From: Enterovibrio baiacu
GTDB taxonomy: Bacteria; Pseudomonadota; Gammaproteobacteria; Enterobacterales; Vibrionaceae
Assembly (NCBI RefSeq): GCF_004120195.1
Contig: NZ_SCHN01000005.1
Coordinates: 1-64,000, forward strand
Length of the DNA: 64,000 nt
Direction: 5' to 3'
Shown here: in pieces, positions 26,800-55,879 of the stretch
Layout of the letters: each line of letters opens with the position of its first letter
How positions within the stretch are numbered: the first letter of the stretch is position 1
Notes under the pieces: model-generated
Told to the model about the DNA's origin: nothing
Databases searched by the model: none
Seen by the model: only the letters and a program-made list of their open reading frames with translations
Program-made: the position numbers and the translations under genes

Positions 26800-27210
26800 A
26801 TGAAAAGGGTTCTTCTTTTACTGGCACTGGCTTCGCCAATGTCCACAATGGCCGCTCAAGGGTTTTCGGCTGGCGTATTTTTGGGTACGCCGATGTCTGG
26901 GGTGACAGTGTCACAAGATGCCATTCGATTGTCATTCGGCATTGAAGAAACAGGCGTCGCGATTGATGGGCTTTGGAACCTTGGCGATTGGTTAGCAAGA
27001 CCTGAATTTGCGCCAATCTATGGTTATACGGGCTTTCAATGGGTAGACGATGAACACCATGAATGGGGGCCTCGTGCAGGGTTGGGCTTGGCGGTTCCAT
27101 TGGGCCACGGTAATGTGGAACTATACGGAGAAGCGGGTTCAACTTGGTATTGGCAGGAAGAATCAGATTTCGAATTTGAAGGCTCATTGGGCGTTCGTAT
27201 GTATTTTTAA
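26800..27210 (+). CDS. Small secreted, probably outer-membrane protein
   Basis: The protein has 136 residues from the ATG at 26800 (an ATG four codons earlier, at 26788, is equally possible). It has a clear Sec signal peptide (MKRVLLLLALASPMSTMA, then AQG). The mature part is rich in aromatic and alternating residues (FQWVDDEHHEWGPRAGLGLA, VELYGEAGSTWYW) and ends in the terminal aromatic strand GSLGVRMYF, typical of small beta-barrels. Family unknown. It contains a matS site at 26902. Confidence 0.7.
   Translation: MKRVLLLLALASPMSTMAAQGFSAGVFLGTPMSGVTVSQDAIRLSFGIEETGVAIDGLWNLGDWLARPEFAPIYGYTGFQWVDDEHHEWGPRAGLGLAVPLGHGNVELYGEAGSTWYWQEESDFEFEGSLGVRMYF
26902..26914. other. matS site 1 (GTGACAGTGTCAC)
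   Basis: An exact match to the MatP-binding consensus GTGACRNYGTCAC, inside a coding region. MatP organises the terminus macrodomain. Confidence 0.8.
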
Positions 27211-27238
27211 AGGTAGGATGTTTTTCCACCGATCCTAA

Positions 27239-27260
27239 AAGAGCACCGAGAGGTGCTCTT
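27239..27260 (+). terminator. Hairpin after the small secreted protein gene
   Basis: The stem AAGAGCACC / GGTGCTCTT with loop GAGA lies 29 bases after the stop; a weak T-run (CACGTTTTG) follows. Confidence 0.6.
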
Positions 27261-27399
27261 CACGTTTTGTGTCATTCACAAGAATTGCGTACCGATTTAC
27301 CCACTCTCCCGAAATGTTAGGCACGAGCAAAGGTCGTATTGCGTGATATCTTTAATACAGAGAAACACCACGGACAACGAACAAAGAGATTTCAGTTAG

Positions 27400-28338
27400 A
27401 TGAAAAGCTTTAGATTACTGCTTGCGATGACGTTCAGTGCATTGCTTGTCACCAACGCGCAAGCGACACAATACGCTTGGCCCGAGGCAAATACGCGTTT
27501 GGTTGGGGAAAACCCTGTGCATGTCGTTCAACAGGGCGAGCATCTAGAAAAGATTGCTAAACAGTACAATGTTGGCTTTCTCGCGCTTTTATCTGCTAAC
27601 CCAGGTGTTGACCCATACCTTCCAAAAGCGGGCACATTTGTCACGATTCCCCAACAGCTTTTGCTTCCCGACGTCGACTATGACGGCATCGTGATCAACC
27701 TTGCTGAGTTACGTTTGTATTACTTTGATAAAGCCGCGAAGGAAATGTTCATCTTTCCCATTGGGATTGGCCGAATTGGTCGCGATACACCGATCATGAC
27801 GACCAAAATCAGCCAGAAGCGTGAAAACCCAACATGGACACCGCCACAAAGTATTCGCAAAGAGTATTTGGAAACGAAAAACATTGTGTTGCCGGACGTC
27901 GTGCCTGCCGGACCTGAGAATCCGTTAGGCCTGCATGCGTTGCGCTTAGCGTATGGTACGGGAACGTATTTGATTCACGGTACCAACAAAGATTTTGGTA
28001 TTGGGCTTAGAGTAAGCTCTGGGTGTATTCGCATGCGCCCCTCAGACATTGCGTGGTTGTTCAATCGCGTCAGTGTGGGTGAGAAAGTGCGTGTGATTAA
28101 CCAGCCAGTAAAAACGAGCTTCGAGCCAGATGGCGCTGTGTACGTTGAAGTGCATCGTCCATTGTCCGCTGACGAATCTCAAGCAGGACAGCGTTTGTTG
28201 ACGCAGCCTGATGAGCGTGTTTCTACATGGTTGACGTCAAACCACATGAATGAGCGTCGTTACCGTGCAGCCTTGGCAATCCAATCGGGTATGCCTATCG
28301 AAATGGGACAACAAATTCTCGCTGACAACGACATTTAA
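27400..28338 (+). CDS. L,D-transpeptidase (YkuD family) with LysM
   Basis: This 312-residue periplasmic protein has a signal peptide (1-22, ending NAQA), a LysM-like domain (about 39-87: HVVQQGEHLEKIAKQYN) that binds peptidoglycan, and the YkuD catalytic domain (about 95-235). The active-site motif has His193 (HGTN) and the catalytic Cys209 in SSGCIRM. The family (E. coli LdtA/B/C/E) attaches Braun lipoprotein to meso-diaminopimelate or makes 3-3 crosslinks. An lpp-type lipoprotein gene 360 bases away suggests the first role. Confidence 0.92.
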   Translation: MKSFRLLLAMTFSALLVTNAQATQYAWPEANTRLVGENPVHVVQQGEHLEKIAKQYNVGFLALLSANPGVDPYLPKAGTFVTIPQQLLLPDVDYDGIVINLAELRLYYFDKAAKEMFIFPIGIGRIGRDTPIMTTKISQKRENPTWTPPQSIRKEYLETKNIVLPDVVPAGPENPLGLHALRLAYGTGTYLIHGTNKDFGIGLRVSSGCIRMRPSDIAWLFNRVSVGEKVRVINQPVKTSFEPDGAVYVEVHRPLSADESQAGQRLLTQPDERVSTWLTSNHMNERRYRAALAIQSGMPIEMGQQILADNDI

Positions 28339-28699
28339 TCGGTCGTTGGACTCCCTTAATAAACGCGTTGTTCGCATGACGAGCAGCGTGTTTTTCTTTT
28401 CCGTGACGCCGCTTTCTGCGTTCTGCTTCTTACTTTTCATCGTCGCCGCAAGGTTCTAGTGCTTTGAATTCACCGTGCATGCACACTAGGTCGAGTATCG
28501 TATTCTCATCTCATGACCGATGAAGTGTTCCGAGCCAATCTAGAAAAACTAAGACTGATGTCTTGATCTGAAATCAATGGAAATGGAAGCGAAGAGTAAC
28601 GGCTCGTGGCGTTGAGGTTGAGGGAGGTTTACGTGGCGTATAAATAGCTGCGGCACCCGAAGGTGCCGCAGAATCATAGGGGGTGTTACTTGCTAAATC
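28339..28699. other. Intergenic region between convergent ldt and lpp genes
   Basis: No supported reading frame. The only feature is the lpp terminator hairpin at 28650-28673. Confidence 0.5.
28650..28673 (-). terminator. Terminator of the lpp-like gene
   Basis: A 10-bp GC-rich stem (CTGCGGCACC / GGTGCCGCAG) with loop CGAA lies about 27 bases past the lipoprotein stop on the minus strand, followed by CTATTTATA. Confidence 0.65.
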
Positions 28700-28945
28700 T
28701 TACTTAGTGTAAGACTGAGCCATGTTGTCGATACGCTCGTTAGCGCGTGCTGCTTCGTCATAAGAAAGCGCTGACGCCGCTGCTACATCTGATACATCGC
28801 CTTGTAGAGCTGAAACCTGGTTAGATAGAGAATCTACTTTAGACGAAAGATCAGCAACACTCTGCTCTAGTGATGAGCTGCCTGAACAACCTACCAATAC
28901 TGCACTAGAAGCGATTGCCGCTAAAGTTAGAAGACGCATTTTCAT
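28700..28945 (-). CDS. lpp: Lpp-type major outer-membrane lipoprotein
   Basis: The protein has 81 residues: a lipoprotein signal with lipobox LVGC (acylated Cys20), then a Ser-rich linker. The helical coiled-coil heptads (LEQSVADLSSKVDSLSNQVS) follow, and the C-terminal lysine (QSYTK) is the usual site of peptidoglycan attachment. The mature length of ~62 residues is close to that of E. coli Lpp (58). The protein ties the outer membrane to the cell wall as a trimer. The ATG at 28945 follows GAGG; a TTG two codons earlier is less likely. Confidence 0.88.
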   Translation of the reverse strand: MKMRLLTLAAIASSAVLVGCSGSSSLEQSVADLSSKVDSLSNQVSALQGDVSDVAAASALSYDEAARANERIDNMAQSYTK

Positions 28946-29132
28946 AGTCAAAACCTCATTGTTTTTGTTTAGATGCCGAACTGCTTTTTACCTGTTTAAC
29001 AACTGGCTGCAGTTTAACAATAGACCGCGATTGTCTATTCTGCCGCCTTAGGTAGACATCGGTGCGACTCATTTTTGATACAGCACAAAAACTAAGCCTG
29101 ATGTCAGCCTAAAAGTTTAGAATTTTAGGAGT

Positions 29133-29597
29133 TTAGTGGTGATCTTTCTTTTTGTGCTTATGCATCTTACTCACCATAATCTTCTTTACGGGTATGTTTT
29201 GGTTGATTTTTGACCCGTCTGAAAACATCAAAGAGAGCGATACTTCGTCGCCTTCTTTCATTGGCGAGGTCAAATCAAAAAACATGACGTGCAAACCACC
29301 CGGTTCCAATACCACTTTGCCATTGGCTGGCACTTCAATCTCTTTCACTTGACGCATTTTCATCATGCCGTCATGCATTTCGTGATTATGCAACTCGACC
29401 TTGCCTGCAGCAGGGGATGTCGCGCTAATCAGTGAAATATCGTTGTTCGTCGAGTTCTCGATGGTCATGAACGCTGCGCTGTTCGGGGCACTTGGTGGCA
29501 TCGCACGTGCGTAAGCGTCATGAATATCAACACTTGCAAATGCTGAGAGTGAAGCGAAGCTCAGTGTTAACCCGAGTAGCGAAGAACGATATTTCAT
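29133..29597 (-). CDS. PCu(A)C periplasmic copper chaperone
   Basis: The protein has 154 residues with a signal peptide (1-22, ending AFA) and the PCu(A)C copper site: His and Met residues in VELHNHEMHDGMMKMRQV, and the downstream HVMF motif in PGGLHVMFFDL. The C-terminus is His/Lys-rich (MHKHKKKDHH), probably adding metal binding. Together with Sco it delivers copper to the CuA centre of cytochrome oxidase. GGAGT precedes the ATG at 29597; upstream in-frame codons are not needed. It lies 75 bases downstream of sco in the same direction. Confidence 0.9.
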   Translation of the reverse strand: MKYRSSLLGLTLSFASLSAFASVDIHDAYARAMPPSAPNSAAFMTIENSTNNDISLISATSPAAGKVELHNHEMHDGMMKMRQVKEIEVPANGKVVLEPGGLHVMFFDLTSPMKEGDEVSLSLMFSDGSKINQNIPVKKIMVSKMHKHKKKDHH

Positions 29598-29672
29598 TAA
29601 GTGACTCCGTTTGTATGTCAATAATAGCGATAAAAATGAAGAATGTAGGCTAAATTTCGTCACTATTTTTGG

Positions 29673-30272
29673 TTATTGTGTTTGCGTTTTTGTTGTGAGT
29701 CGAGAAATGGCATCAGACACCATATTTGGATTGAGTGTGTGAGGCACTTTCTCTAGCAAATTCCCGTTTGGCGCTAGGAAGTAAAAGTAGGAGCTGTGGT
29801 CAACGGCATACTCCATTGCTGAATCTTCAAGCGCTGAAATCTGGTAAAGCACGCCATACTTTTTAGCGAGCGCATCAATCGCATCTTGTGAGCCGCTGCT
29901 GCCTTCAATGCGCGGGTGAAAGTAGCCCGCATATTCTTGTGCGGCATCGCCATCATCGCGTTCAGGATCCAGCGTGACGAAAACAGGGCGAACTTTATCG
30001 AGTGTTTCATCGGGCAGTGATTTAAGCGCGGCAGAAAGGATAGCCAAAGATGTTGGGCAAACGTCGGGGCAATGCGTATAGCCAAAGTAAACCACACGTA
30101 CGCGTTCATCGGCATTATCGAAAAGGTTGATGGTGTCCTGTCCACTTTGAAGCAACCCAAGATTGACGTTGGAAGAGGCAACAGGTTCATCTGCTGCGTT
30201 CTGTTCAACGAAATAACGGGCTCCGAGTCCGGCGAGTAGCGCCGTGGCGAGCACAAGGATCTTTATCTTCAT
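29673..30272 (-). CDS. Sco1/SenC-family copper-binding thioredoxin-fold protein
   Basis: This 199-residue protein is anchored or exported by an N-terminal hydrophobic helix (1-20). It has the copper motif CPDVC (Cys68, Cys72) in YFGYTHCPDVCPTSL, and the third ligand His in the family motif VDHSSYFYFLAP. Sco proteins assemble the CuA site of cytochrome c oxidase and act in thiol redox. It overlaps the preceding membrane-anchored gene by four bases (ATGA) and is followed by the PCuAC chaperone gene. Confidence 0.92.
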   Translation of the reverse strand: MKIKILVLATALLAGLGARYFVEQNAADEPVASSNVNLGLLQSGQDTINLFDNADERVRVVYFGYTHCPDVCPTSLAILSAALKSLPDETLDKVRPVFVTLDPERDDGDAAQEYAGYFHPRIEGSSGSQDAIDALAKKYGVLYQISALEDSAMEYAVDHSSYFYFLAPNGNLLEKVPHTLNPNMVSDAISRLTTKTQTQ

Positions 30273-30718
30273 CGCACCATTCTTACGTCAATGGGAAGAG
30301 AAATAGACTTATCAGGGCTGCTAATGGTGCCTCGCCATGTCATTTCTGCATCCATGCAAATTGGCAACATCACATCACCTTGAAATTGGTTTTTGTTGGT
30401 TTTCGCCAACTTTAACTTGTAGATACCCATGTTCATTTCTACACCCTCAAGCTCAACGAGCAAGTAGGGCGCTTCGCTTTCCGTGTTCACACTCAGCGTG
30501 GAAGGCACAAGCGGTTCTACGGTGTCATTTTCCAAGGTCGCCGTAGCATTGGTGAAATCACAGGCTGTGGTGCTTAATACGCAATCTGATGCGATGTCGT
30601 TTTGTTCATTTGCAGAGGCAAACAAAAAGCTGTCTGCAAAAAAGTAACCAATCCAAACACATGCAAAGAGAGAAAATACACTGACAAAACGGCGAAGAGG
30701 GTGTTGCGAACTTTTCAT
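30269..30718 (-). CDS. Uncharacterised membrane-anchored protein of the sco operon
   Basis: The protein has 149 residues from the ATG at 30718 (an ATG at 30745 would add nine residues; neither has a strong ribosome binding site). A basic N-terminus and one hydrophobic helix (about 12-33) anchor a periplasmic domain with a Cys pair in SDCVLSTTACDF and the segment MLPICMDAEMTWRGTI. It overlaps sco by four bases and so is translationally coupled to it. A role in copper or oxidase assembly is inferred from context only. Confidence 0.65.
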   Translation of the reverse strand: MKSSQHPLRRFVSVFSLFACVWIGYFFADSFLFASANEQNDIASDCVLSTTACDFTNATATLENDTVEPLVPSTLSVNTESEAPYLLVELEGVEMNMGIYKLKLAKTNKNQFQGDVMLPICMDAEMTWRGTISSPDKSISLPIDVRMVR

Positions 30719-30804
30719 TAGGTGATGTTTTAGTAGTGAATACATCAAAAAGCTTACCACCAATTGTTATAAATCTGTGTGAGGGATGTCTTGAAATTTC
30801 GCCT

Positions 30805-30832
30805 ATAAAAAAGGGCCGCATTACGCAGCCCT
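30805..30832 (-). terminator. Rho-independent terminator after popT
   Basis: The stem GGGCTGC / GCGGCCC (one G-T pair) with a 5-base loop is followed by TTTTTTATA on the minus strand, 26 bases past the stop. Confidence 0.8.
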
Positions 30833-34148: not shown

Positions 34149-34265
34149 TTCACCCATCAAGCTAATGTCTCCCTGCAATCAAACGGTTTAACTAAAATGT
34201 GATGTATGTGAACGAGGCTTAGATTCTGATACCATCTCGTTTTGTGCACTGCATCAAAGGGAATC

Positions 34266-36008
34266 ATGCCTAAAGTCACTCATTTCACGCTCTCAATTGC
34301 ACACATCAACGATACGCACTCCCATTTTGAGCCAACACCTGTTTCGCTGTCTGTAAAAGGGCAGGAAAAGCGTGTCTATGCGACAAGCGGCGGTTTTGCA
34401 CGTATCAAAACGGTGGCAACACAATTCCGTGAAAATGCTGAACGCGATGGGAATGCGTTTTTATTCCTACATGCTGGGGACTGCTTTCAAGGCACCTTGT
34501 ACTACAACCTTTTTAAAGGCGATGCCAACGCCAAACTGCTGAACATGCTTGATCTCGATGCCATGGCGTTGGGGAATCATGAATTAGATTTGGGCAACGC
34601 CGCGGTATCTAAATTCCTTGATCACATCTCCTTCCCATTGCTGGCTGGCAACTGGGATTTAAGCCAAGAAATTCAGGACAAGCCTTGCCCGCTAAAGGGA
34701 AAGCCCTTGTTGTATGACTTCGATACACAAGAACAGCGCGCGAAAGTGCTGGTGAAAACGTTCGGCGATCATCAAGTGGCTATATTTGGTGTCTCTATTG
34801 ATAAAATGGCACAAATCGCCATGCCGGATGCTGATACGCCTTTCCTCGAATCAAAAATGGTGGTGTTGAATACCCTTGCCTACATTCGCAACACCTTAGG
34901 GATACGCAATATCGTTCTGCTTAGCCACCTTGGGTATGACCAAGATTTGAAAATGGCGGAAGAAGTAGAGGGCCTCTCCGTGATTGTGGGTGGGCACAGC
35001 CATGTCTTACAGGGGGATTTCAGTAATGTCGGTTTGGGCAATTCTGAGCCTTATGGCCGTAAGATTAACAACACGCTGGTGGTACAAGCGGGGTGTCATG
35101 CTTTAGCCATTGGCAAGCTTGATGTCACATTAGACAGTGATGGTCATGTTTTGTCGCACACGGGTGATAACTACTTGATGCTCGGCCGTGGTTTGGCGTT
35201 GGATGCCTCTTGGGATATGGCGCTTGATGAGCATGATTTTGATGCGGCAAAGACTTATCTTGCTGAACAATCGAATGTTTTACACTGTCGTGGTGACAAA
35301 GAGGTGAAAGCTTTACTGAACACGGAGTACCGTCCAGCCGTCTTAGCTATGCGCAGTGACGTTGTCACTAAATTGACTGATCGACTCCGCCATATTCGTG
35401 TCCCTGACGAAAAAGGACCGAGCCAAATTGCGCCGCTGGTCTGCGAAGGTTTGCTTTATTCCGCCAATATCCGTGGTCATGGGGTGGATTTCGCCATTCA
35501 CAATGCTGGCGGTGTGCGTGTGTCGCTTGAAGCAGGAAAACTTACCGCGGCAGATGTTGCTGGGCGACTGTTGCCGTTCGCCATCGATTTGATGGTGTAT
35601 GAACCAACGGGCGCGCAGGTCAAAGCCGCTTTAGAAGGGGCGATCAATAACGCGACCAACAACGGCGTTGAAGGGACGGGCGATGGCAGTTTCCCTTATA
35701 CCGCTGGGTTGCGGTATACCTATGAATGCAACATGCCAGAAGGTCAGCGAATCACTCAGCTTCAATACCAGCTTGTGTCTGGGGAATGGCTCGATGTAGC
35801 GTTAGAGAAAACCTACCGTGCCGTGTCGTCTGCCTACACATCGCAAGGAAAGGAAGGGTATGACGCCTTGAAGAACCTCGGTTCTCAGCCTGTGTCTATT
35901 GGCGTTATTTTGTCGGACAGTTTTATTGAATATGCCCGCGCCAATGACAATCTACGTGCGCCTAAAGAAACGCTTCAACACTACGTGCCTTGTGCTGAAT
36001 CGAACTGA
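34266..36008 (+). CDS. 5'-nucleotidase/UshA-type metallophosphoesterase without signal peptide
   Basis: This 580-residue two-domain enzyme has the dinuclear-metal motifs AHINDTHSHF, HAGDCFQGTLYYNLF, ALGNHELDLG and VGGHSHVL in the N-terminal metallophosphatase domain. The C-terminal 5'-nucleotidase domain has IHNAGGVRVSLEAGKLT and DGSFPYTAGLRYTYE. The family hydrolyses nucleotides or UDP-sugars. Most members are periplasmic, but here MPKVTHFTLSIAHINDTHSH leaves no room for a signal peptide, and AAAGGGAATC right before this ATG supports the start. A cytoplasmic location is therefore inferred. It contains a matS site at 35356. Confidence 0.85.
   Translation: MPKVTHFTLSIAHINDTHSHFEPTPVSLSVKGQEKRVYATSGGFARIKTVATQFRENAERDGNAFLFLHAGDCFQGTLYYNLFKGDANAKLLNMLDLDAMALGNHELDLGNAAVSKFLDHISFPLLAGNWDLSQEIQDKPCPLKGKPLLYDFDTQEQRAKVLVKTFGDHQVAIFGVSIDKMAQIAMPDADTPFLESKMVVLNTLAYIRNTLGIRNIVLLSHLGYDQDLKMAEEVEGLSVIVGGHSHVLQGDFSNVGLGNSEPYGRKINNTLVVQAGCHALAIGKLDVTLDSDGHVLSHTGDNYLMLGRGLALDASWDMALDEHDFDAAKTYLAEQSNVLHCRGDKEVKALLNTEYRPAVLAMRSDVVTKLTDRLRHIRVPDEKGPSQIAPLVCEGLLYSANIRGHGVDFAIHNAGGVRVSLEAGKLTAADVAGRLLPFAIDLMVYEPTGAQVKAALEGAINNATNNGVEGTGDGSFPYTAGLRYTYECNMPEGQRITQLQYQLVSGEWLDVALEKTYRAVSSAYTSQGKEGYDALKNLGSQPVSIGVILSDSFIEYARANDNLRAPKETLQHYVPCAESN
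35356..35368. other. matS site 2 (GTGACGTTGTCAC)
   Basis: An exact match to GTGACRNYGTCAC, within the 5'-nucleotidase-like gene. Confidence 0.85.
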
Positions 36009-37926: not shown

Positions 37927-38189
37927 TACTTGTTGAATATTTAAGTGACGCTGTCACTTGCATCTCAAACCTACTTATCCCTCTCTATTCTTAGACTTTT
38001 ATGGTCTATCATATTGATTAACTATTCTCATCCACGTCACGCTCACCGCCTATTTCCTTTATTGAACAAATAATTATGTCGTTGAGTGATGGCATTTAGT
38101 CATGATTAAACATCATGCGGAAAGAGGCTAGACAAGGCGTTCTCAGTTCGTCACTATGATTCAAAGACAACAAAAAAGAGTGATTTAAC
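37927..38189. other. Intergenic region with a matS site
   Basis: No reading frame is supported. The region contains matS site 3 at 37945 and the promoter of the HlyU-family gene. Confidence 0.5.
37945..37957. other. matS site 3 (GTGACGCTGTCAC), extended palindrome
   Basis: An exact match to GTGACRNYGTCAC. Here the palindrome extends two bases further on each side (AAGTGAC...GTCACTT), and the site lies between genes. Confidence 0.88.
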
Positions 38190-38465: not shown

Positions 38466-38789
38466 CTGACCGAGATCAAAGCAAAATTTCGCAATTTCGG
38501 TCAAAAAATAGCCCTAGAAAAACGCTTGATTGATCTTGTTCGGAACGATGAAAGCGTGTTTTTACGCTAAATGAGCCTTTAATCAATAGCTTGAAACAGA
38601 AAAGTTATGAGAGGTCTGACCTCTGTCCATGGCTGAATTACGTTATTTTCTTACTAAAACTCGTTAGTATGGCTTTAAATCTCGTTTGATCATTGATTGT
38701 TTTAGTATTTTTCCTACATATATCTTGATTGAGCGCTTTGAGTGCATTACAAACAATTTACTTACACTGCCAATAGTCAGGGATTAACT
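38466..38789. other. Intergenic region upstream of pntA
   Basis: An imperfect hairpin GACCGAGA / TTTCGGTC (38468-38501) follows the HlyU-family gene, without a T-run on the plus strand. The remainder is AT-rich promoter DNA for pntAB; no reading frame is supported. Confidence 0.45.
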
Positions 38790-40343
38790 ATGCAAATTGG
38801 TGTACCAAAAGAAATACTTGCGCATGAAACGCGAGTTGCTGCCACACCGAAAACGGTCGAGCAGCTATTAAAAATGGGCTTCGACGTTGTCGTCGAGCGC
38901 GATGCAGGTCTGCTTGCCAGTTTTGACAATACTGCTTTTGAACAAGCAGGTGCCAAAGTGGTTGATGCCGAATCCGTTTGGCAATCAGACATCATTTTCA
39001 AAGTTAATGCCCCTGCTGAGGTAGAAGGGAATAACGAGTTTGAGAGCCTAAAAGAAGGCACAACACTTGTTAGTTTCATTTGGCCTGCGCAAAACGAAGC
39101 ATTGATGGAAAAGCTTGCAGCGAAAAATATCAATGTGTTGGCGATGGATGCGGTTCCACGTATTTCACGCGCACAAGCCTTGGATGCATTGAGCTCAATG
39201 GCAAACATCGCGGGTTACCGTGCTGTTGTTGAAGCTGCTCATGAGTTTGGCCGTTTCTTTACGGGCCAAATTACGGCGGCAGGTAAAGTCCCACCAGCGA
39301 AAGTCTTCGTTGCGGGCGCAGGTGTTGCTGGCCTTGCGGCTATCGGTGCTGCGGGTAGCCTAGGTGCTATTGTTCGCGCATTCGACGTTCGTCCTGAAGT
39401 AAAAGAGCAGGTCGAAAGTATGGGTGCTGACTTCCTTCAAGTGGCTTTTGAAGAGCAAGCAGGAAGCGGTGACGGTTATGCGAAAGAAATGTCTGATGAC
39501 TTTAATCGCAAAGCTGCTGAGCTATACGCCGAGCAAGCGAAAGACGTTGATATCATCATCACGACCGCACTGATTCCAGGTCGTCCAGCACCTAAACTGA
39601 TCACCAAAGAAATGGTCGACTCAATGAAGTCGGGCAGTGTGATCGTTGACTTGGCCGCGGCAAATGGCGGTAACTGTGAATACACAGAAGCCGACAAAGT
39701 TGTGCTAACGGACAACGGCGTAAAAATCATCGGTTATACCGACATGGTTGGTCGTCTTCCTACCCAATCTTCACAACTCTACGGTACTAACCTCGTTAAC
39801 TTGATGAAGCTGCTTTGCAAAGAAAAAGACGGCAACATCGACATCGACTTTGAAGATGTTGTGTTACGTGGCGTTACCGTGATCAAAGAGGGCGAGGTCA
39901 CTTGGCCAGCGCCACCAATTCAAGTTTCTGCACAACCGCAGGCGAAGCCAAAAGCACAACCTGCCGCAAAAGTTGAGAAAGTTGAAGAACCTACGTCTCC
40001 AGTGAAAAAAGTCGTCGGCCTTGCTGCGGCTGTGGGTGCATTTGCTTGGGTTGCTTCTATTGCGCCAGCTGCATTCTTGTCTCACTTCACCGTATTTATC
40101 CTTGCTTGTGTGATTGGTTATTACGTGGTTTGGAACGTAACACATGCGCTTCATACGCCTTTGATGTCAGTAACGAATGCAATTTCCGGCATTATCGTTG
40201 TTGGTGCACTTCTTCAAATTGGTCAAGGCAACGGGGTGGTTTCCTTCCTCGCGTTTATTGCCGTTTTGATTGCGAGCATCAATATCTTTGGCGGTTTCAC
40301 AGTCACCAAGCGCATGCTTGAAATGTTCCGTAGAGATAAGTAG
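38790..40343 (+). CDS. pntA: NAD(P) transhydrogenase alpha subunit
   Basis: This 517-residue protein starts [20 protein letters not shown]. It contains the NAD-binding motif [18 protein letters not shown] (about 176-193), [12 protein letters not shown] and [12 protein letters not shown], then an Ala/Pro/Lys linker (about 375-410) and four membrane segments at the C-terminus. With PntB it forms the proton-pumping transhydrogenase that makes NADPH from NADH. The ATG at 38790 fits the family start; a longer upstream frame is rejected. pntB follows after 12 bases. Confidence 0.97.
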
Positions 40344-40355
40344 GAGTAGCCGATA

Positions 40356-41750
40356 ATGTCTGAAGGTTTAACACAAGCGGCATATATTGTAGCTGCTCTC
40401 TTTTTCATCTTGAGTTTGGCAGGTCTGTCAAAACAAGAGTCTGCGCGTACTGGTAACTACTTCGGTATTGCAGGTATGGCGATTGCTCTGATTGCGACCA
40501 TTTTTGGTCCTGACGCACAAGGCATCGCGTGGATCATCGTTGCAATGGTAATTGGTGGTGGTATCGGTATTTACTACGCAAAACGCGTGGAAATGACCGA
40601 AATGCCAGAACTGGTTGCTGTGCTTCATAGCTTCGTAGGTTTGGCGGCGGTATTGGTAGGCTACAACAGCTTTATCGAGCCACCAGCAATGAACCTTGCG
40701 AACCCTGCTGAAATGCATGCTGCGCATGTCATCCACATGGTTGAAGTGTTCTTGGGCGTGTTCATCGGTGCGGTGACCTTTACGGGTTCAATCGTTGCAT
40801 TTGGTAAACTGCGCGGCATCATCTCTTCGTCTGCACTGAACATTCCACATAAGCATAAGTGGAACCTTGCTGCGATCTTAGTCTCAACGGCACTCATGAT
40901 TTACTTCGTGAAAGCAGACGGCAGCATGTTTGCTCTGATTGTGATGACATTGATTGCGTTCGCATTTGGCTATCACTTAGTGGCCTCAATCGGTGGTGCA
41001 GATATGCCAGTGGTTGTGTCGATGCTGAACTCATACTCGGGTTGGGCAGCGGCAGCAGCGGGTTTCATGCTGGCAAACGATCTTCTGATTGTAACTGGTG
41101 CGTTGGTCGGTTCTTCAGGTGCGATTCTGTCTTACATCATGTGTAAAGCAATGAACCGTTCTTTCATCAGTGTTATCGCCGGTGGCTTCGGTCAAACCGT
41201 ATCGGTATCAAGTGACGAAGAAGAAGGTGAGCACCGTGAAGTGAGCGCTGAAGACGTAGCAGAAATGCTGAAAGATTCTCGCTCAGTCATCATCACTCCA
41301 GGATACGGCATGGCGGTTGCGCAAGCGCAATACCCAGTGCACGAAATCACTGAGAAACTGCGTGCGAAAGGTATCGACGTTCGTTTTGGTATTCACCCAG
41401 TAGCGGGTCGTCTACCTGGTCACATGAACGTGCTTCTGGCAGAAGCGAAAGTACCGTATGACATCGTTCTAGAAATGGACGAGATCAACGAAGACTTCCC
41501 TGAGACAGACACTGTGCTTGTTATTGGCGCGAACGACACGGTTAACCCAGCAGCGATGGAAGATCCAAACAGCCCAATCGCGGGTATGCCTGTCCTTGAA
41601 GTGTGGAATGCGAAAAACGTTATCGTCTTTAAGCGTTCAATGAACACAGGTTACGCGGGTGTTCAAAACCCACTGTTCTTTAAAGAGAACACAGCGATGT
41701 TGTTCGGCGATGCAAAAGCATCGGTAGATGCGATTTCTAAAGCAATCTAA
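40356..41750 (+). CDS. pntB: NAD(P) transhydrogenase beta subunit
   Basis: The 464-residue protein has an N-terminal half of about nine membrane spans, with the channel region ALIAT...[20 protein letters not shown] and [15 protein letters not shown]. The C-terminal NADP-binding domain has [37 protein letters not shown] and [12 protein letters not shown]. It is the partner of PntA in the same operon and is followed by a strong terminator. Confidence 0.97.
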
Positions 41751-49099: not shown

Positions 49100-49579
49100 G
49101 TGTTGAAACACTTTGTATGTGCAAGCCTCACTTTATGCACGCTTGTGACGCCGTCACTTTTACATGCAGCTTATTCTCCCGAACATGCATCATCACAAAC
49201 CGTCATTACAGACGGTGGTAAGTATCAGCTAAACACCGATTTTGGTCGTCGATCTGATTTGATGGAATGGAGAGTTGAAGACGTCGAGCTTCCTAATATT
49301 TGGGATGGCTGGCGTTATGGTTTGGATGCACCCAATTATCTCACCGCGGAGGCGGGGAACAGTTATTACGGATTCGGCGTTTGGAAACCCGAAGAACTTG
49401 AAGAATACAGCTTGGGTTCTGATGGTGTGAGCACACAAGAGTGGTTAATGAACCACGGATTGAATTTTAGCTTTGGTACTGAGTCCGTCGACGGAAGTGC
49501 CAGATATCGGTTTGACGTGCGTTGGCATGAACAAACCGATACCGAATTTATGTTGCAACTTCAGGTTCCCTTTCAGTAA
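49100..49579 (+). CDS. Secreted protein of unknown function
   Basis: The protein has 159 residues from a GTG (a TTG one codon later is equally possible), with a Sec signal peptide (1-23, ending LHA). The mature protein is aromatic and acidic (MEWRVEDVELPNIWDGWRYG, SYYGFGVWKPEELEEYSLG) and ends in MLQLQVPF, compatible with a beta-rich periplasmic or outer-membrane domain. Family not recognised. Its 3' end overlaps the converging gene by seven bases. A matS site lies in its signal-peptide codons. Confidence 0.6.
   Translation: MLKHFVCASLTLCTLVTPSLLHAAYSPEHASSQTVITDGGKYQLNTDFGRRSDLMEWRVEDVELPNIWDGWRYGLDAPNYLTAEAGNSYYGFGVWKPEELEEYSLGSDGVSTQEWLMNHGLNFSFGTESVDGSARYRFDVRWHEQTDTEFMLQLQVPFQ
49145..49157. 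other. matS site 4 (GTGACGCCGTCAC)
   Basis: An exact match to GTGACRNYGTCAC, within the 5' part of the secreted-protein gene. Confidence 0.85.
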
Positions 49580-50238
49580 CCCGCAATCGCTTTCAGCTTG
49601 GCGGCCACTTCTTCTTCATTGAGTGACGCCTTGCTCGCTATCTTCGCCACTTTTTGACCAGACTTTATTGCACGCACCCATTCTCGCACCAAAAGTTGGT
49701 CTGAAAGTGCATCGACGGAAAGTTGCAACGACAGTTCCAGTGCATTGTTCTCTGCAATGTCACCCAACTGGCCCTTTGCTAACTTATCAATCGCCTTTTC
49801 TAACAAAGCCGTTTCTTTCGAGATGCCCTGCAAAGGCGGGTGGATGGTGACATAGTCACGTAAACAACGCAGCAAACGACCATAGGCAGAATCCCAGTCG
49901 GTTGTGCCGAGTTTTTGATGGTGACCGAGCTCTGCCATCAGCCCATCTAACAACGGAGAAGGCGAGAAGAAACCTGATTGCGTTGGAAGCGCGACAATCG
50001 TTCGTACTGAAAAGTCCAACGTGGACACGTCAGAACCTTGCAATATCGTTACCGCATTCAAACAACCAGACGGAAGCCAGTAGCTTTGGCCTGCACACAC
50101 TGGAAACTCGTTTTTGCCGAGTCGAATTAGGGCCGCGCCTTTATGCACATAAAGGAAAGTGGCGTGAGGCTGTGCTTTGCGTCCGCCCACAAAAAGTGTA
50201 TCGGCTTGATGAAAGTGAAATTCGATGGCTTGCTTCAT
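49573..50238 (-). CDS. AraC-like cupin regulator with degenerate DNA-binding domain
   Basis: The protein has 221 residues. The N-terminal ~95 form an AraC-type cupin (ATFLYVHKGAALIRLGKNEF, AGQSYWLPSGCLNAVTIL), as in proteins of the AraC family that protect small molecules or regulate efflux. The C-terminal half is helical (SLQLSVDALSDQLLVREWVR, KVAKIASKASLNEEEVAAKL) and contains at most one helix-turn-helix-like unit instead of two. It may bind DNA poorly or need a partner. The ATG at 50238 is preceded by GAGA. Its 3' end overlaps the converging secreted-protein gene by seven bases. Confidence 0.65.
   Translation of the reverse strand: MKQAIEFHFHQADTLFVGGRKAQPHATFLYVHKGAALIRLGKNEFPVCAGQSYWLPSGCLNAVTILQGSDVSTLDFSVRTIVALPTQSGFFSPSPLLDGLMAELGHHQKLGTTDWDSAYGRLLRCLRDYVTIHPPLQGISKETALLEKAIDKLAKGQLGDIAENNALELSLQLSVDALSDQLLVREWVRAIKSGQKVAKIASKASLNEEEVAAKLKAIAGY
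49847..49859. other. matS-like site with one deviation (GTGACATAGTCAC)
   Basis: Both conserved arms are exact, but the central triplet ATA departs from RNY at one position. It lies in the AraC-like gene. Confidence 0.5.
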
Positions 50239-51614: not shown

Positions 51615-51660
51615 AAAAAAAGCGGATTTAGTGACAACGTCACTAAATCCGCTTTTTGTT
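51615..51660. terminator. Bidirectional terminator with matS site 5 in its stem
   Basis: A perfect 19-bp stem (51617-51635 and 51639-51657) with a 3-base AAC loop has A/T-runs at both ends. It separates converging acyltransferase and LysR genes. The upper part of the stem, GTGACAACGTCAC, is itself a perfect matS site. Confidence 0.9.
51631..51643. other. matS site 5 (GTGACAACGTCAC)
   Basis: An exact match to GTGACRNYGTCAC, located at the tip of the terminator hairpin. Confidence 0.85.
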
Positions 51661-51688: not shown

Positions 51689-52615
51689 TTATAGCTGTCC
51701 GTCACTCAATGGCGCTAGCGCTGAACGTTCAATGTTCTCCGCAAGGAAGTCGACAAAACGGCGTACCTTGGGTGCTAAATATTCGCGACGAGGATAAACA
51801 GCATAGATCGGCAGTTTCAATGTTGGCTTCCAATCCGACATCAATACCTTGAGCTTTCCTTCCTGCAACTCGCTCCCAAGCAGGTAAGTCGCAATGTAGG
51901 CGATACCGACACCTGACTTTGCTGCCTCTAACACCGCAGGGGCATTATTGATTCGATAACCGCCACGCACGGTAACTGACTGATCGCTGCCATCGCGAGA
52001 GAATGGCCATTGGTCGTAGGTGCGCTGAACACTTTGATAGGTTATGCAGTTATGGTCACGAAGATCAGAAGGGTGAGATGGCATGCCATGTTCTTCGATA
52101 TAAGCCGGTGATGCGACCAATTTAAACTGACAGTCCGCCAACTTTTTCGCCACCATACCTTCAGGTAAATTTTCATGAATCGCTAGCCAACAGTCGAAGC
52201 CATCTTCCAGAAGATTAGGGCGATGATCGAACAAATGCACTTCTAATTCGAGGGAAGGGTTTTGCTGTTGGAAGGCAGACAGTAGGCGAGTGATTTGCAC
52301 ATTTCCAAAAGATTGCGCAATGCCAATCTTTAGCCTTCCGGACACTTCATTTCTGTACCCAGCAACCATTGCTTCGGCATCTTGCATGGTCTCCATCAGC
52401 TTTCGCCCATAAGCGGCATACTGTTCGCCAGCTTCTGTTAACGAAACCGAGCGTGTATTTCTCTGAACAAGCTGAACACCAAGGCGTTCTTCAAGGTAGC
52501 GGATTTGTTTGCTGACTTGAGATTTTGAAATCCCCAAGAATTCTGCTGCACGGGTGAAGTGCTGTTCGTGTGCAACGGTCGCCAGTACGACCATTTGCTG
52601 AAGGTTATCTAACAT
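51689..52615 (-). CDS. LysR-family transcriptional regulator
   Basis: This 308-residue regulator has an N-terminal winged helix (about 3-62: HEQHFTRAAEFLGISKSQVSKQIRYLEERLG) and a C-terminal periplasmic-binding-protein-like effector domain (about 90-295). It belongs to the CrgA/AaeR-like group judging by the QNPSLELEVHLFDHRPNLLEDGFD segment. Target genes are unknown; chrA lies beyond a long intergenic region. Confidence 0.88.
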   Translation of the reverse strand: MLDNLQQMVVLATVAHEQHFTRAAEFLGISKSQVSKQIRYLEERLGVQLVQRNTRSVSLTEAGEQYAAYGRKLMETMQDAEAMVAGYRNEVSGRLKIGIAQSFGNVQITRLLSAFQQQNPSLELEVHLFDHRPNLLEDGFDCWLAIHENLPEGMVAKKLADCQFKLVASPAYIEEHGMPSHPSDLRDHNCITYQSVQRTYDQWPFSRDGSDQSVTVRGGYRINNAPAVLEAAKSGVGIAYIATYLLGSELQEGKLKVLMSDWKPTLKLPIYAVYPRREYLAPKVRRFVDFLAENIERSALAPLSDGQL

Positions 52616-53232
52616 GCGGTAATTAGGTCACTGATAAGATAGAGGATAAGACTACCACATTTCTCTGTTTATTCATGAGTGACGTTGTCACATGAAGAAT
52701 CTAATCGCCATTGGTGATGATAGGCTGTGATCTGTCTATCTATAGCAAACAACCGACCAACAATTTTCACGCATTTTTACCTTCCATTCTTTTCCTGCCT
52801 TCAATGCAAATCATCAAAAGGGATGTGCCGTCTTTCTTACATCGTCGATCTTACTTTTAGGCGTGTTAGTGGGCGAGAGATCGATAAATAGGTGAGATGT
52901 AAGTGACTTTCAATCATGTTCCGGCTTTCTCCTGTTACTCTCTAAGGCTTTTAAAGCTATTTAAAACAATGATATAGGTGCTTTGTTGATTTCTGGAAAC
53001 AATACGCCGGTAAGTTAGTGTGCACTCACATACATTTGTAGTAAAGATACAGATCCACACGATCTTTACCCGAATAACTGCGGTTTAAAGGGATCTTGTT
53101 CGTGCAGGAAACACAGCTAAACCGGTAATGCTTACTCATCGATGAGGTTAATAACCTTGATTAGTACAAAGTGTTTTCATTGATGGGATAGCCTCCGTTA
53201 AAATTGGCGGCATAAATGGAGGTACACGAACA
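52616..53232. other. 617-base intergenic region with one matS site
   Basis: No reading frame with family resemblance or ribosome binding site was found. It contains matS site 6 (52679), the lysR promoter and, at the right end, the chrA ribosome binding site GGAGGT. The length is unusual for this gene-dense window, so it may carry an unseen small RNA or small gene. Confidence 0.5.
52679..52691. other. matS site 6 (GTGACGTTGTCAC)
   Basis: An exact match to GTGACRNYGTCAC, 64 bases upstream of the lysR start. Confidence 0.85.
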
Positions 53233-54387
53233 ATGTTTGAAGTTTTTTATCGTTTCTTTGTTTTGGGCTGTATGAGTTTTGGTGGCCCAGTTGCTCACAT
53301 CGGATATTTCCAACGAGAGTTTGTGGAGAAACGTCATTGGATAGAAGAAGAGACGTTTTCGACGGGGTTAAGCCTTTGTCAGTTTCTACCTGGACCTGCA
53401 AGTAGCCAGTTAGGCATGTACATTGGTTATCACAGAGCTGGGTACTTAGGTGCGTTAGCAGCGTTTGTCGGTTTTACCTTTCCCTCTTTCGCGTTGTTAA
53501 CACTGGCTGCGGTATACAGTGCAAAACTGGGCGATTCGACGGTTCTGGCTCTACTGATTTCAGCGGCGAAATTATTGGCGGTTGTTGTCGTTGCGGATGC
53601 AATTTGGACGATGGCGAAGAAGTTTCTCACTGATGCTGTGACCGCGCTGGTGTGTTTTGTGTCAGCGGCATGGATCTTGTGGCAAACCGGACTGGTTGCG
53701 CAGCTGATGCCTATCGTAATTGCTGGCGTGTTAGGGTGGGTATTCATAAGAAAGCCCGAGTCAACCGCACCTAAAGCGCGTGAAGGCGTGAATCTGACAC
53801 AAACGCTTGTTCTATTTGGTGTGTTTGCAGCCTTGTTGGTGCTTCCTGCATTGGCGAGCGGTTCTGGCCTTATCACCTTATTCAATCACTTCTATCAAGC
53901 GGGTAGCTTTGTATTTGGTGGTGGTCACGTCGTGCTGCCGTTGTTACAGCCCTTAATTGGCGACGCAGTGTCGGGTGATGCCTTGGTTGAAGGCTATGCG
54001 GCAGCACAATTGGTTCCGGGCCCTATGTTTACCATTGCAAGCTATATTGGTGCTTCAATGGAAGGGATCCACCCTGTGCTTGGCAGCGTCGTTGCAACCT
54101 TGGCGATATTTCTGCCTGGCGCGTTGTTGTTGTTCGCTGCATTGCCTGTATGGCAGGCAGTGATGAGTCATCATAAGTTTGCTGGCGCTGTAACACTGAT
54201 TAATGCGGCGGTAGTGGGCTTATTGGTGGCAGCCTTCTACCAGCCTGTTTGGGTGTCTGCCGTCCACGGTATTGCTGACATCGTTGCAGTCGTTGTTGGC
54301 TTCGCGGTGATGCGTAAATTCAATATCTCGGTGTTCTGGTTGCTGGGTGGCATGTTGGTGTATGTTGTTGCCAGCTCGATGATTTGA
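53233..54387 (+). CDS. chrA: Chromate transporter ChrA
   Basis: This 384-residue, two-domain CHR protein has the duplicated signature SFGGPVAHIGYFQREFVE with CQFLPGPASSQLG in the first half, and SFVFGGGHVVLPLLQ with AAQLVPGPMFTIASYIG in the second, and about ten membrane spans. It exports chromate (and possibly sulfate) by antiport. AATGGAGGT lies before the ATG. A strong terminator follows. Confidence 0.92.
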   Translation: MFEVFYRFFVLGCMSFGGPVAHIGYFQREFVEKRHWIEEETFSTGLSLCQFLPGPASSQLGMYIGYHRAGYLGALAAFVGFTFPSFALLTLAAVYSAKLGDSTVLALLISAAKLLAVVVVADAIWTMAKKFLTDAVTALVCFVSAAWILWQTGLVAQLMPIVIAGVLGWVFIRKPESTAPKAREGVNLTQTLVLFGVFAALLVLPALASGSGLITLFNHFYQAGSFVFGGGHVVLPLLQPLIGDAVSGDALVEGYAAAQLVPGPMFTIASYIGASMEGIHPVLGSVVATLAIFLPGALLLFAALPVWQAVMSHHKFAGAVTLINAAVVGLLVAAFYQPVWVSAVHGIADIVAVVVGFAVMRKFNISVFWLLGGMLVYVVASSMI

Positions 54388-54428
54388 TTTACCGAAAACT
54401 CAGATTTATCTGAACCATGTTGATACCT

Positions 54429-54457
54429 AAAGCCTGCCTTTGTGCAGGCTTTTTTTC
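54429..54457 (+). terminator. Rho-independent terminator of chrA
   Basis: A 9-bp stem AAAGCCTGC / GCAGGCTTT with loop CTTTGT is followed by TTTT. Confidence 0.9.
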
Positions 54458-54661
54458 GTTATAACAGGCTGTTAAGTGGCAGAAAGAGCATCTCATAATG
54501 CACTATAACTTATATGTAGTGGCGAATTTATAAAATGATTGGGTGTGATGTATTCATGGGTGCCGGGCAGCAAAAGCAAGGAAGGATGTGCAGTTTGGTT
54601 ACGAGAGTGGAACCCTAAGCAGCGTCTATCAACGCGCTGGCATTATTAACACGGTGAGCGC

Positions 54662-54695
54662 TGTATCTCGGTGAGTGTTGTATCTCGGTGAGTTT
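54662..54695. repeat. Short tandem repeat, unit about 17 bases
   Basis: TGTATCTCGGTGAGTGT is followed at once by TGTATCTCGGTGAGTTT, differing at one base. The origin is unknown. Confidence 0.7.
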
Positions 54696-54744
54696 TGGAG
54701 GAGAAGGGCCAGTACTCGCGGGTGTTCGGCTTATAAGGGTTAAC

Positions 54745-54779
54745 AAAAAAGCGCCGAGGCTAATCGACAGCCTCGGCAC
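54745..54779 (-). terminator. Rho-independent terminator of the oxidoreductase gene
   Basis: An 11-bp stem with one mismatch (GCGCCGAGGCT / AGCCTCGGCAC) is followed by TTTTTTG on the minus strand. Confidence 0.85.
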
Positions 54780-54850
54780 TTTTTACTTTTCTTTAATTGT
54801 ATCTACGTCGTGATAACCCTGTGGGCCAGGCTTTCGCGACAAGCGCGGGA

Positions 54851-55879
54851 TTAGAATTCCCAGCGTTCTGTCTTGCCTGCATCTGACGAATGTTGGGCGA
54901 GTTCCAGTGCGTAGATAACTTTAACTGCATCATACGCATCAATCGGTGATGAACCCGCATTCAGTATGGCGTGAGCAAGCTCTGCGAAGAGTTGACTATA
55001 ACTACCGAATTCAAGGTCGATCACTTTATCAGTGACGCTGTCACCGATTTCAAGCTTACCTTGGTGTTGTTGGCGGCCAAATTCTGAATAGGTGATAGTG
55101 ACACCGTCACGCAATTGCTGTTCTTGGATGTCTAATCCACTGCATGAAAAGGTAGCGCGTTCTCCTTGCACAACAAATCGTGTTCCTGTCCCAGAACGAT
55201 AAGGGCTAGATGATAGCATCACGTCTTTATCAGGGTAGTGAAGTGTCATGTTGAAGTAATCGTTGGTTTGAGACTGCTTACGAATGGCCTTGCAGGTTGC
55301 CGTGATTGAATCAGGGTCACCGAACAACACCAACGCCTGATCAACCAAGTGAGAACCCAGGTCGTACAGAATGCCAGCACCATCACCCGGCTGTTCACGC
55401 CAGCGAGGACGCACATCGGGGCGGAATCTATCAAAATGCGATTCAAAGACGCGTACTGCGCCGAGCTCGCCAGATTCAATCAATGCTTTTGCGGTAAGGA
55501 AGTCACCGTCCCAGCGTCGGTTTTGATACGGACAAAGGATCTTGCCACGTTCTTTCGCGATTTTGATGAGATCGAGACCTTGGCCACTTTTCACGACGAA
55601 GGGCTTTTCGAGCAATACGTGGCAATCGGCTTCAAGCGCCTGACGTGCGAAATCGTAATGCGTGTGGTTTGGAGTGGTGATAACGACCAAATCGAGGTCA
55701 GCTTCACTGAGCATCTCTTCGATTGAGCCATAGAGCCCAGCATTAGGGAGGGCGTGATGAACCGCGTCACGTTGCGTTGATACAACCGCCACAGGTTCGA
55801 AATCTGGTAGTACTGAGAGAAAAGGGAGATGGAATGTTTGCGCTGACAAACCAAAACCGACAATACCCGTCCGAATCAT
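54851..55879 (-). CDS. Gfo/Idh/MocA-family oxidoreductase, YdgJ-like
   Basis: This 342-residue NAD(P)-dependent oxidoreductase has an N-terminal Rossmann motif (GIVGFGLSAQTFHLPFL), the catalytic-lysine motif EKPFVVKS (about Lys93), CPYQNRRWDGDF, and YDLGSHLVDQALVLFG in the second domain. It resembles E. coli YdgJ. The sugar or polyol substrate is unknown. A purine-rich AAGGAT precedes the ATG at 55879. Two matS sites lie within the gene. Confidence 0.88.
   Translation of the reverse strand: MIRTGIVGFGLSAQTFHLPFLSVLPDFEPVAVVSTQRDAVHHALPNAGLYGSIEEMLSEADLDLVVITTPNHTHYDFARQALEADCHVLLEKPFVVKSGQGLDLIKIAKERGKILCPYQNRRWDGDFLTAKALIESGELGAVRVFESHFDRFRPDVRPRWREQPGDGAGILYDLGSHLVDQALVLFGDPDSITATCKAIRKQSQTNDYFNMTLHYPDKDVMLSSSPYRSGTGTRFVVQGERATFSCSGLDIQEQQLRDGVTITYSEFGRQQHQGKLEIGDSVTDKVIDLEFGSYSQLFAELAHAILNAGSSPIDAYDAVKVIYALELAQHSSDAGKTERWEF
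55032..55044. other. matS site 7 (GTGACGCTGTCAC)
   Basis: An exact match to GTGACRNYGTCAC, in the oxidoreductase gene. Confidence 0.85.
55098..55110. other. matS site 8 (GTGACACCGTCAC)
   Basis: An exact match to GTGACRNYGTCAC, 66 bases from site 7. Confidence 0.85.

What the first reader, a model, noticed from the sequence alone, without database searches (positions are those of the whole stretch)
26902..55110. Dense cluster of exact matS sites: the window lies in the terminus macrodomain
Eight exact copies of the 13-base MatP-binding motif GTGACRNYGTCAC (26902, 35356, 37945, 49145, 51631, 52679, 55032, 55098), plus one with a single central deviation (49847), lie between 26.9 and 55.1 kb. 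I saw none in 1-26.9 kb or 55.1-64 kb. For uniform base composition about 0.02 copies would be expected in 64 kb. All eight have an RNY centre. Both intergenic and coding copies occur, so codon use alone does not explain them. Adjacent pntAB and vxrABC, which I recall near the terminus of V. cholerae chromosome 2, agree with this placing. One site per ~3.5 kb is far denser than the ~1 per 35 kb known for the E. coli Ter domain.
Basis: partly seen in the sequence, partly recalled or inferred. Interest (0 to 1): 0.8.

Follow-up and report, generated by a model that had tools for sequence, protein, structure and literature searches.

The report
MatP-site cluster beside chromosome-2 terminus
The window carries a real, evolutionarily conserved cluster of docking sites for MatP, the protein that organises the part of a bacterial chromosome where copying ends; the system is known, but a pair of sites written into a gene's codons and one site built into a likely transcription stop signal are unusual.

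Summary
The genome has 40 sites; 29 lie in two zones making up 7.4% of it, on contigs C5 (the window's) and C17. Each zone holds a dif-like site, with converging KOPS and a GC-skew reversal nearby. matP and mukB are present. The window is the origin-side flank of the second terminus. The C5 zone's density (9.2 per 100 kb) exceeds E. coli's but lies within published Vibrionales values (PMC10945525, Table 1).

New detail: several sites keep their place across the genus. A doublet 66 bp apart inside an oxidoreductase gene is exact in 11 of the 13 genus genomes with the gene, and its framing codons show almost no synonymous change (0 of 1,000,000 resamplings as low). The site at 51631 is the invariant tip of a terminator-like hairpin whose outer stem covaries. 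So the sites are selected as DNA. MatP binding, MukBEF unloading and termination are inferred. Known kind, with fine structure that my literature searches did not turn up.

The parts
26902..26914 (.). matS site, GTGACAGTGTCAC
   Evidence: overlaps a poorly supported ORF (26741-27229 -, no family hit); relatives G019 and G013 have a matS in the same interval, G008 one in the aligned ORF
34242..36008 (+). 5'-nucleotidase-family gene that contains a matS
   Evidence: Pfam PF02872 and PF00149
35356..35368 (.). matS site in 5'-nucleotidase codons 372-376
   Evidence: exact matS at the same codon in 7 of 9 genomes; Asp373, Val374 and Val375 codons identical in 9 of 9
37945..37957 (.). matS site, intergenic
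   Evidence: of the 8 relatives compared, found only in the closest, G008
38742..41750 (+). pntA and pntB, transhydrogenase subunits
   Evidence: Pfam PF05222, PF01262, PF12769 and PF02233
41890..43972 (+). DUF3404 histidine kinase and response regulator (vxrAB-like)
   Evidence: Pfam PF11884, PF00486 and PF00072; the name vxr is recalled
49145..49157 (.). matS site near the 5' end of ORF 49100-49579
   Evidence: same place in 4 of 9 genomes
49847..49859 (.). off-consensus near-matS, GTGACATAGTCAC
51617..51657 (.). two-way intrinsic-terminator-like hairpin (19 bp stem) between convergent genes
   Evidence: folding energy -26.2 and -27.1 kcal/mol on the two strands
51631..51643 (.). matS site forming the invariant top of that hairpin
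   Evidence: exact in 8 of 9 genomes; G001 keeps the hairpin with a one-base variant
52679..52691 (.). matS site 64 bp upstream of a LysR-type gene (51689-52615 -)
   Evidence: exact at 61-64 bp upstream in 8 of 9 genomes; one-base variant in G003
54851..55879 (-). Gfo/Idh/MocA oxidoreductase gene that carries the matS doublet
   Evidence: Pfam PF01408 and PF02894; PRK11579-like, below that family's cut-off
55032..55044 (.). matS doublet, site A (codons 279-283)
   Evidence: 12 of 13 genomes with the gene; synonymous constraint
55098..55110 (.). matS doublet, site B (codons 257-261), start 66 bp from the start of site A
   Evidence: 12 of 13 genomes with the gene; synonymous constraint

Best explanation
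The window is the origin-side flank of the terminus (Ter2) macrodomain of the smaller chromosome of a Vibrionaceae bacterium, and the palindromes are MatP-binding sites (matS). MatP made from the single matP gene on the other terminus-bearing contig would bind them as a dimer. By analogy with E. coli it would unload or exclude the condensin MukBEF from the terminus, and by analogy with V. cholerae it would keep sister termini near midcell until XerCD/FtsK have finished at dif. The core of the cluster (49.1-55.1 kb) is largely kept at orthologous places across the genus. It includes two sites 66 bp apart in codons of an oxidoreductase gene and one site built into a two-way terminator-like hairpin, so selection acts on the DNA sites themselves. 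Shown here: site positions, concentration at both termini, dif, skew and KOPS, presence of matP and mukB, cross-species conservation, synonymous constraint and hairpin covariation. Inferred: that this is chromosome 2, MatP binding, MukBEF unloading, midcell anchoring, termination by the hairpin, and that close packing matters for function.
For: Exact sites far beyond chance. Genome-wide concentration, 29 of 40 sites in 398.6 kb (the zone edges were drawn from the sites themselves). dif-like sites inside both zones. GC-skew reversal and KOPS convergence: on C5, 4 of 4 KOPS left of dif on + and 29 of 31 to its right on -. matP over the curated cut-off in 17 of 17 genus genomes, matching MatP chains of solved structures (7nyw, 4d8j, 3vea). 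In the 3-contig genome G017, 17 of 21 sites on C1 lie at 1.69-2.08 Mb around a dif at 1.88 Mb, and 15 of 20 on C2 lie at 0.61-0.88 Mb around a dif at 0.84 Mb. Doublet in 11 of 13 gene-bearing genus genomes. Only 2 of 1014 windows of the gene keep a 5-3-5 word in at least 12 of 13 sequences, and they are the two matS. The six framing codons are less diverse than all of 1,000,000 resamplings. Hairpin arms change on both sides at 10 of 16 pairs while the five matS pairs never vary in 8 sequences.
Against: No binding data were seen for this organism. The in vivo looping assay in E. coli was negative for MatP (PMC8053113, passages), so bridging between close sites is not established. Bunching inside the zone is only weakly non-random. 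Two of the eight window sites (26902, 37945) are poorly conserved and 49145 is in 4 of 9. Eleven of 40 sites lie outside the two zones. The C17 dif-like site departs from the typed pattern at 3 positions, and the C17 skew changes sign near 260 kb, about 16 kb past it. Sequences are related, so conservation counts are not independent, although four-fold codons elsewhere in the gene are near saturation (mean pairwise difference 0.62). One of five hairpin measures, the number of further pair types, is reached by 45 of 500 shuffles. The doublet was not found in 180 other genomes of the family. rctB was not located and zapB was not tested.
Confidence: 0.93

Rival explanations
1. The palindromes are operators of local regulators (for example the LysR-type regulator at 51689-52615, or another palindrome-binding factor), not MatP sites.
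For: The site at 52679 lies 61-64 bp upstream of the LysR-type gene in 8 of 9 genomes, a plausible promoter position.
Against: The same 13-mer is concentrated at both termini of the genome, and lies inside coding sequence and in a convergent-gene terminator-like hairpin, where an operator makes little sense. Of the 19 copies on C5 with both five-base arms intact, 18 have the RNY centre of the matS consensus.
Confidence: 0.03
2. The motif is a by-product of codon use, terminator structure or base composition and has no function of its own.
For: Two of the 18 exact C5 sites lie in strong hairpins (51631 and 125269), and five of the eight window sites overlap ORFs.
Against: Expected 0.01 in shuffles. 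The reversed-pattern control finds 2 in the genome against 40. Synonymous freeze at exactly the framing codons. The outer hairpin arms vary while the matS part does not.
Confidence: 0.02
3. The close doublet and the 6-kb core form a specialised high-occupancy MatP anchor (cooperative binding or a MukBEF unloading hub) rather than ordinary dispersed sites.
For: Doublet and neighbouring sites are retained across much of the genus, with the doublet 16-32 kb from dif in the nine genomes compared. In E. coli, dense matS inhibit MukBEF better than the same number dispersed (PMC10945525, passages).
Against: No measurement of cooperativity. The 66-bp spacing is fixed simply because the protein has no indels. 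No in vivo looping by E. coli MatP in one assay (PMC8053113, passages).
Confidence: 0.3

Closest known systems
MatP/matS Ter macrodomain of Escherichia coli (Mercier 2008, recalled; PMC10945525, passages seen)
   Same: Same 13-bp motif, one matP gene, sites concentrated in the dif-containing terminus, mukB present.
   Different: Two termini with sites; about 9 per 100 kb in the C5 zone against 3 per 100 kb; a conserved 66-bp doublet and a terminator-embedded site.
Vibrio cholerae TerI/TerII MatP domains (Demarre 2014, PMC4177673, passages and one section seen)
   Same: Two chromosomes each with dif and matS; one MatP; the TerII contact domain is also lopsided about dif2 (from 9 kb to one side to 152 kb to the other).
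   Different: The doublet was not found in the 180 other genomes of the family examined here (unnamed, so whether V. cholerae is among them is not known). Site-by-site comparison with V. cholerae was not made.
Vibrionales matS distributions tabulated in PMC10945525 (Aliivibrio, Photobacterium, Salinivibrio, V. cholerae)
   Same: High densities (3.1 to 18.8 per 100 kb of Ter), highest near dif.
   Different: That paper counts sites per species; the passages I saw do not address position-by-position conservation, codon constraint or terminators.
Plesiomonas shigelloides chromid terminus (PMC8826520, passages seen)
   Same: matS sites and dif on a Vibrio-related secondary replicon.
   Different: A different order and a 299-kb chromid.

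Membership tests
MatP/matS Ter macrodomain | matS consensus GTGACRNYGTCAC present far above chance | tested here: met
   8 in the window, expected 0.01; 40 in the genome against 2 for the reversed control
MatP/matS Ter macrodomain | Sites concentrated in the terminus region | tested here: met
   29 of 40 in two zones containing dif-like sites; same in the 3-contig relative G017
MatP/matS Ter macrodomain | Terminus markers: dif, GC-skew reversal, KOPS convergence | tested here: met
   for this genome; dif in relatives
MatP/matS Ter macrodomain | A matP gene in the genome | tested here: met
   NF003471, 231 bits, one copy; 16 of 16 relatives
MatP/matS Ter macrodomain | MukBEF present as the target of MatP | tested here: met
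   mukB only: PF04310 over cut-off in 15 of 17 genomes, G000 included; no match in G004 and G014. mukE and mukF not searched
MatP/matS Ter macrodomain | ZapB link to the divisome | not tested
   no search made
MatP/matS Ter macrodomain | MatP binds these sites in vivo and alters domain folding | not testable with these tools
   needs ChIP-seq and Hi-C
Intrinsic (Rho-independent) terminator, 51617-51657 | GC-containing stem-loop followed by a U tract, conserved as a structure | tested here: met
   19-bp stem, 7 G-C pairs; folding z -8.6 and -9.7; 94.5% of cells paired with changes on both sides at 10 of 16 pairs in 8 sequences; four of five measures reached by at most 3 of 500 shuffles, the fifth (further pair types) by 45 of 500
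Intrinsic (Rho-independent) terminator, 51617-51657 | Stops transcription from both sides | not testable with these tools
   needs a termination assay or RNA-seq

The most novel reading that the evidence does not exclude
The core of Ter2 in this genus is a dual-coded MatP anchor: a matS doublet frozen into the codons of a metabolic gene and a matS that doubles as the tip of a two-way transcription terminator, packed within about 6 kb and kept in register across species. It would act as a high-occupancy point for MukBEF unloading or terminus tethering, with the terminator placing MatP where converging RNA polymerases stop.
Probability: 0.3. Interest if true: 0.6.

Novelty: new member of a known kind. 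Interest (0 to 1): 0.42.

Why it matters
It places the window at the second terminus and extends MatP/matS biology to a genus that no tool here names. Position-by-position conservation and codon freeze give sequence-only evidence that individual matS sites, not just their number, are selected. [quoted passage not shown] this conserved doublet and tight core are a natural test case. A terminator-like hairpin whose tip is a MatP site raises the testable idea that MatP sites are kept where transcription will not strip the protein off.

Tried and rejected
rctB (the chromosome-2 initiator) was looked for in seven ORFs at the two ends of G017:C2 and not found, so 'chromosome 2' rests on two dif-bearing zones, matP on the larger G017 contig, and recall that pntAB/vxr lie on chromosome 2 in V. 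cholerae. LysR operator and codon-use explanations were considered and rejected (see rivals). The doublet was not found in 180 other genomes of the family; whether those genomes have the gene was not tested. Ten of the 80 loci were checked for matS at the window's positions: eight carried sites, six of these Vibrio or Photobacterium; none falls at a conserved position of the window, but two Photobacterium loci (L023, L033) share a site in the vxrB-like gene at codon 160. PADLOC gave nothing for three ORFs at the left edge. The genus is not named by any tool; genome sizes suggested Enterovibrio/Grimontia to me, which is a guess.

Selection to tell: the eight relatives fetched for the 9-genome comparison all have the exact doublet, so 9 of 9 for the doublet there means nothing; the unselected figure is 11 of 13 genomes with the gene (17 searched). 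For the other sites this choice may also bias counts upward; G006, G015, G016 and G018, which also have the gene, were not fetched for it. Only C17:80001-400000 of 478,561 bases was read for skew and KOPS. The hairpin alignment holds 8 of 9 sequences; G001, whose matS has one changed base, was left out and reported separately. Codons were scored only where at least 11 of 13 sequences share the residue. The count of hairpins on C5 (70, two with the motif) rests on my own threshold of a 9-bp perfect stem with an A- or T-rich flank.
Full report
Observation. The near-copy at 49847 is real, and one-mismatch copies lie at 2930, 12239 and 61962.

Genome-wide test. The window is bases 1-64000 of contig C5 (537,295 bases) of a 5.37-Mb assembly in 52 contigs. 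The genome holds 40 exact sites against 2 for the reversed-pattern control. Eighteen are on C5, 17 of them between 26.9 and 211.2 kb. Thirteen are on C17, 12 of them between 161.9 and 376.3 kb. The remaining nine are spread over five other contigs. The two zones make up 7.4% of the genome and hold 29 of 40 sites (binomial 2e-24, zone edges chosen after seeing the sites).

Terminus markers. A dif-like site lies at C5:83450 and another, with 3 mismatches to my typed pattern, at C17:243765. On C5 the GC skew is positive from 1 to 70 kb, mixed to 100 kb and negative thereafter (one 10-kb bin excepted). KOPS GGGNAGGG are on the + strand in 4 of 4 cases left of dif and on the - strand in 29 of 31 cases right of it. 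On C17 (80-400 kb read) the same switch occurs: KOPS on + in 10 of 11 cases left of dif and on - in 9 of 9 to its right, with the skew turning negative from 260 kb. One matP gene is at C17:229032-229475; its protein matches MatP chains of solved structures. mukB is at C17:40928. The window is thus the left flank of a terminus, with dif 28 kb to the right of the last window site.

Relatives. Genus-mates of 5.4-5.7 Mb carry 38-46 sites (G001, G003, G006, G007, G008). G017 (three contigs) has 21 sites on a 3.76-Mb contig, 17 of them within 1.69-2.08 Mb around a dif at 1.88 Mb, and 20 on a 1.76-Mb contig, 15 of them within 0.61-0.88 Mb around a dif at 0.84 Mb. Its matP is on the larger contig and the window's orthologous cluster on the smaller, hence Ter2. 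Smaller genomes differ: 21 sites in G005 (4.0 Mb), 8 in G002 (3.7 Mb) and 1 in G004 (2.1 Mb).

Density. The C5 zone has 9.2 sites per 100 kb and the window cluster 28 per 100 kb. PMC10945525 (abstract and passages) tabulates 3 per 100 kb for E. coli and 3.1-18.8 for Vibrionales chromosomes, with density rising towards dif; its consensus and zone rule differ from mine, so the comparison is rough. The zone density is ordinary for the order. Given 17 sites in the zone, a bunch of eight in 28 kb is not rare (6%), and five in 6 kb is mildly unusual (2%). Here the bunch is not at dif but 28-57 kb to one side.

Position-by-position conservation. I fetched 100 kb around the orthologous region from eight relatives (all chosen among genomes with the doublet) and mapped sites to the window's genes. 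The site between the convergent acyltransferase-like and LysR-type genes (51631) is exact in 8 of 9 genomes. The site 61-64 bp upstream of the LysR-type gene (52679) is exact in 8 of 9. The site at codon 374 of the 5'-nucleotidase gene (35356) is exact in 7 of 9. The site at codon 18 of ORF 49100-49579 (49145) is exact in 4 of 9. A site at codon 135 of the chromate-transporter gene, absent from the window's genome, is present in 5 of 9. The window sites 26902 and 37945 are poorly conserved.

The doublet. Sites 55032 and 55098 lie 66 bp apart in a Gfo/Idh/MocA oxidoreductase gene. The exact doublet pattern occurs in 11 of 17 genus genomes, and the gene in 13 of 17; in 180 other genomes of the family it occurs in none. 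Each site taken alone is exact in 12 of 13 genes. Among sequences that share the residue, the codons that frame the two sites show no synonymous change, apart from one GTA among 13 at codon 260; two sequences change a residue (Arg257 in G018, Val282 in G006). Four-fold codons of the gene have mean pairwise difference 0.62. Only 2 of 82 four-fold codons and 1 of 62 six-fold codons show no synonymous change, and all three are framing codons (279, 282 and 257). Resampling six codons of the same degeneracy gave 0 of 1,000,000 as low. Among 1014 windows of the gene only two keep a 5-3-5 word in at least 12 of 13 sequences, and they are the two matS. The 5'-nucleotidase site shows the same freeze (Asp, Val and Val codons identical in 9 of 9), whereas the chromate-transporter codons, where 4 of 9 genomes lack the exact site, do not. 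The 66-bp distance itself is uninformative, since all 13 proteins are 342 residues long.

The terminator. Site 51631 is the top of a 41-nt inverted repeat with A and T tracts, between convergent genes. It has the longest stem of 14 terminator-like hits in 48-57 kb, where shuffles give 9.0 hits, and folds at -26 to -27 kcal/mol on both strands. In eight species the outer stem changes on both sides at 10 of 16 pairs (94.5% of cells paired, covariation 0.625 against 0.233 in shuffles and 0.11-0.28 when slid), while the five matS pairs never vary; one of five measures, further pair types, is matched by 45 of 500 shuffles. A ninth species, G001, keeps the hairpin with one changed matS base. Another C5 site, 125269, is also the tip of such a hairpin; of 70 strong hairpins on C5 by my threshold these two carry the motif. 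A near-copy at C17:244296 sits in a similar inverted repeat beside the C17 dif-like site. Hairpin and protein site therefore seem to be kept by separate constraints. Actual termination is not shown.

Mechanism. From homology: MatP binds matS as a dimer (recalled), removes or blocks MukBEF in the terminus, and holds termini near midcell. In E. coli, inhibition of MukBEF grows with the number and local density of matS (PMC10945525, passages). In V. cholerae, MatP confines TerII sisters and causes their contacts at division over a 160-kb region lopsided about dif2 (PMC4177673, passages and section 15). Bridging of sites is seen in crystals but a looping assay in E. coli was negative (PMC8053113, passages), so I do not claim that the doublet loops. 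One observation fits the MukBEF role: the reduced 2.1-Mb genome G004 has no mukB match, keeps matP and has a single exact matS left. General genome erosion could explain it as well, and the other genome without a mukB match, G014, was not counted for single sites.

Literature. Nine searches listed no paper whose title or abstract start treats orthologous conservation of single matS sites, codon constraint at matS, or matS in terminators; the lists were capped at 10-20 rows, I saw passages of five papers and the full text of none. Subscription papers are mostly not in the library.

Verdict. A correct and well-read observation of a known system in a further genus, with fine structure that seems new and is worth testing.

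Noticed in passing
G003 C1:113443 and C23:173546; G001 C6:468715 and C50:165666; compare L016 and L017: The six-base core between the Xer arms of dif appears exchanged between chromosomes in two relatives. In G000, G006, G007, G008 and G017 the matP contig has TGTATA and the Ter2 contig TCTATC. G003 has TCTATC on the matP contig and TGTATA at Ter2; G001 (6% contamination estimate) has TCTATC on the matP contig and TTTATA at Ter2. G005 has TGTATA and TACATC.
   Followed up: partly
G019 C38 (3,233,652 bases): matP at 104910, dif at about 98770, Ter2 cluster near 1.53 Mb: Both termini lie on one 3.2-Mb contig, and the Ter2 dif core there is TGTATC, intermediate between the two types: a natural chromosome fusion or an assembly join.
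   Followed up: partly
G004 C2:274770-275778 (L214): A reduced 2.1-Mb genome without a mukB match keeps matP but only one exact matS, about 0.55 kb upstream of matP inside the divergent neighbouring ORF. G000 also has matS about 0.6 kb upstream of its matP.
   Followed up: partly
C17:244296: A GTGACCCTGTCAC near-matS at the tip of a long inverted repeat (one mismatch) about 0.5 kb from the dif-like site of the other terminus.
   Followed up: no
L023:13445 and L033:13485: Two Photobacterium loci share a matS at codon 160 of the vxrB-like response-regulator gene, a position without matS in the window: another candidate for codon-embedded conservation.
   Followed up: no
window 118-3717: A large ORF with RHS repeats and a C-terminal DNA/RNA non-specific endonuclease domain, resembling a polymorphic toxin of interbacterial competition; three nearby ORFs sent to PADLOC (this one included) had no match.
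   Followed up: no
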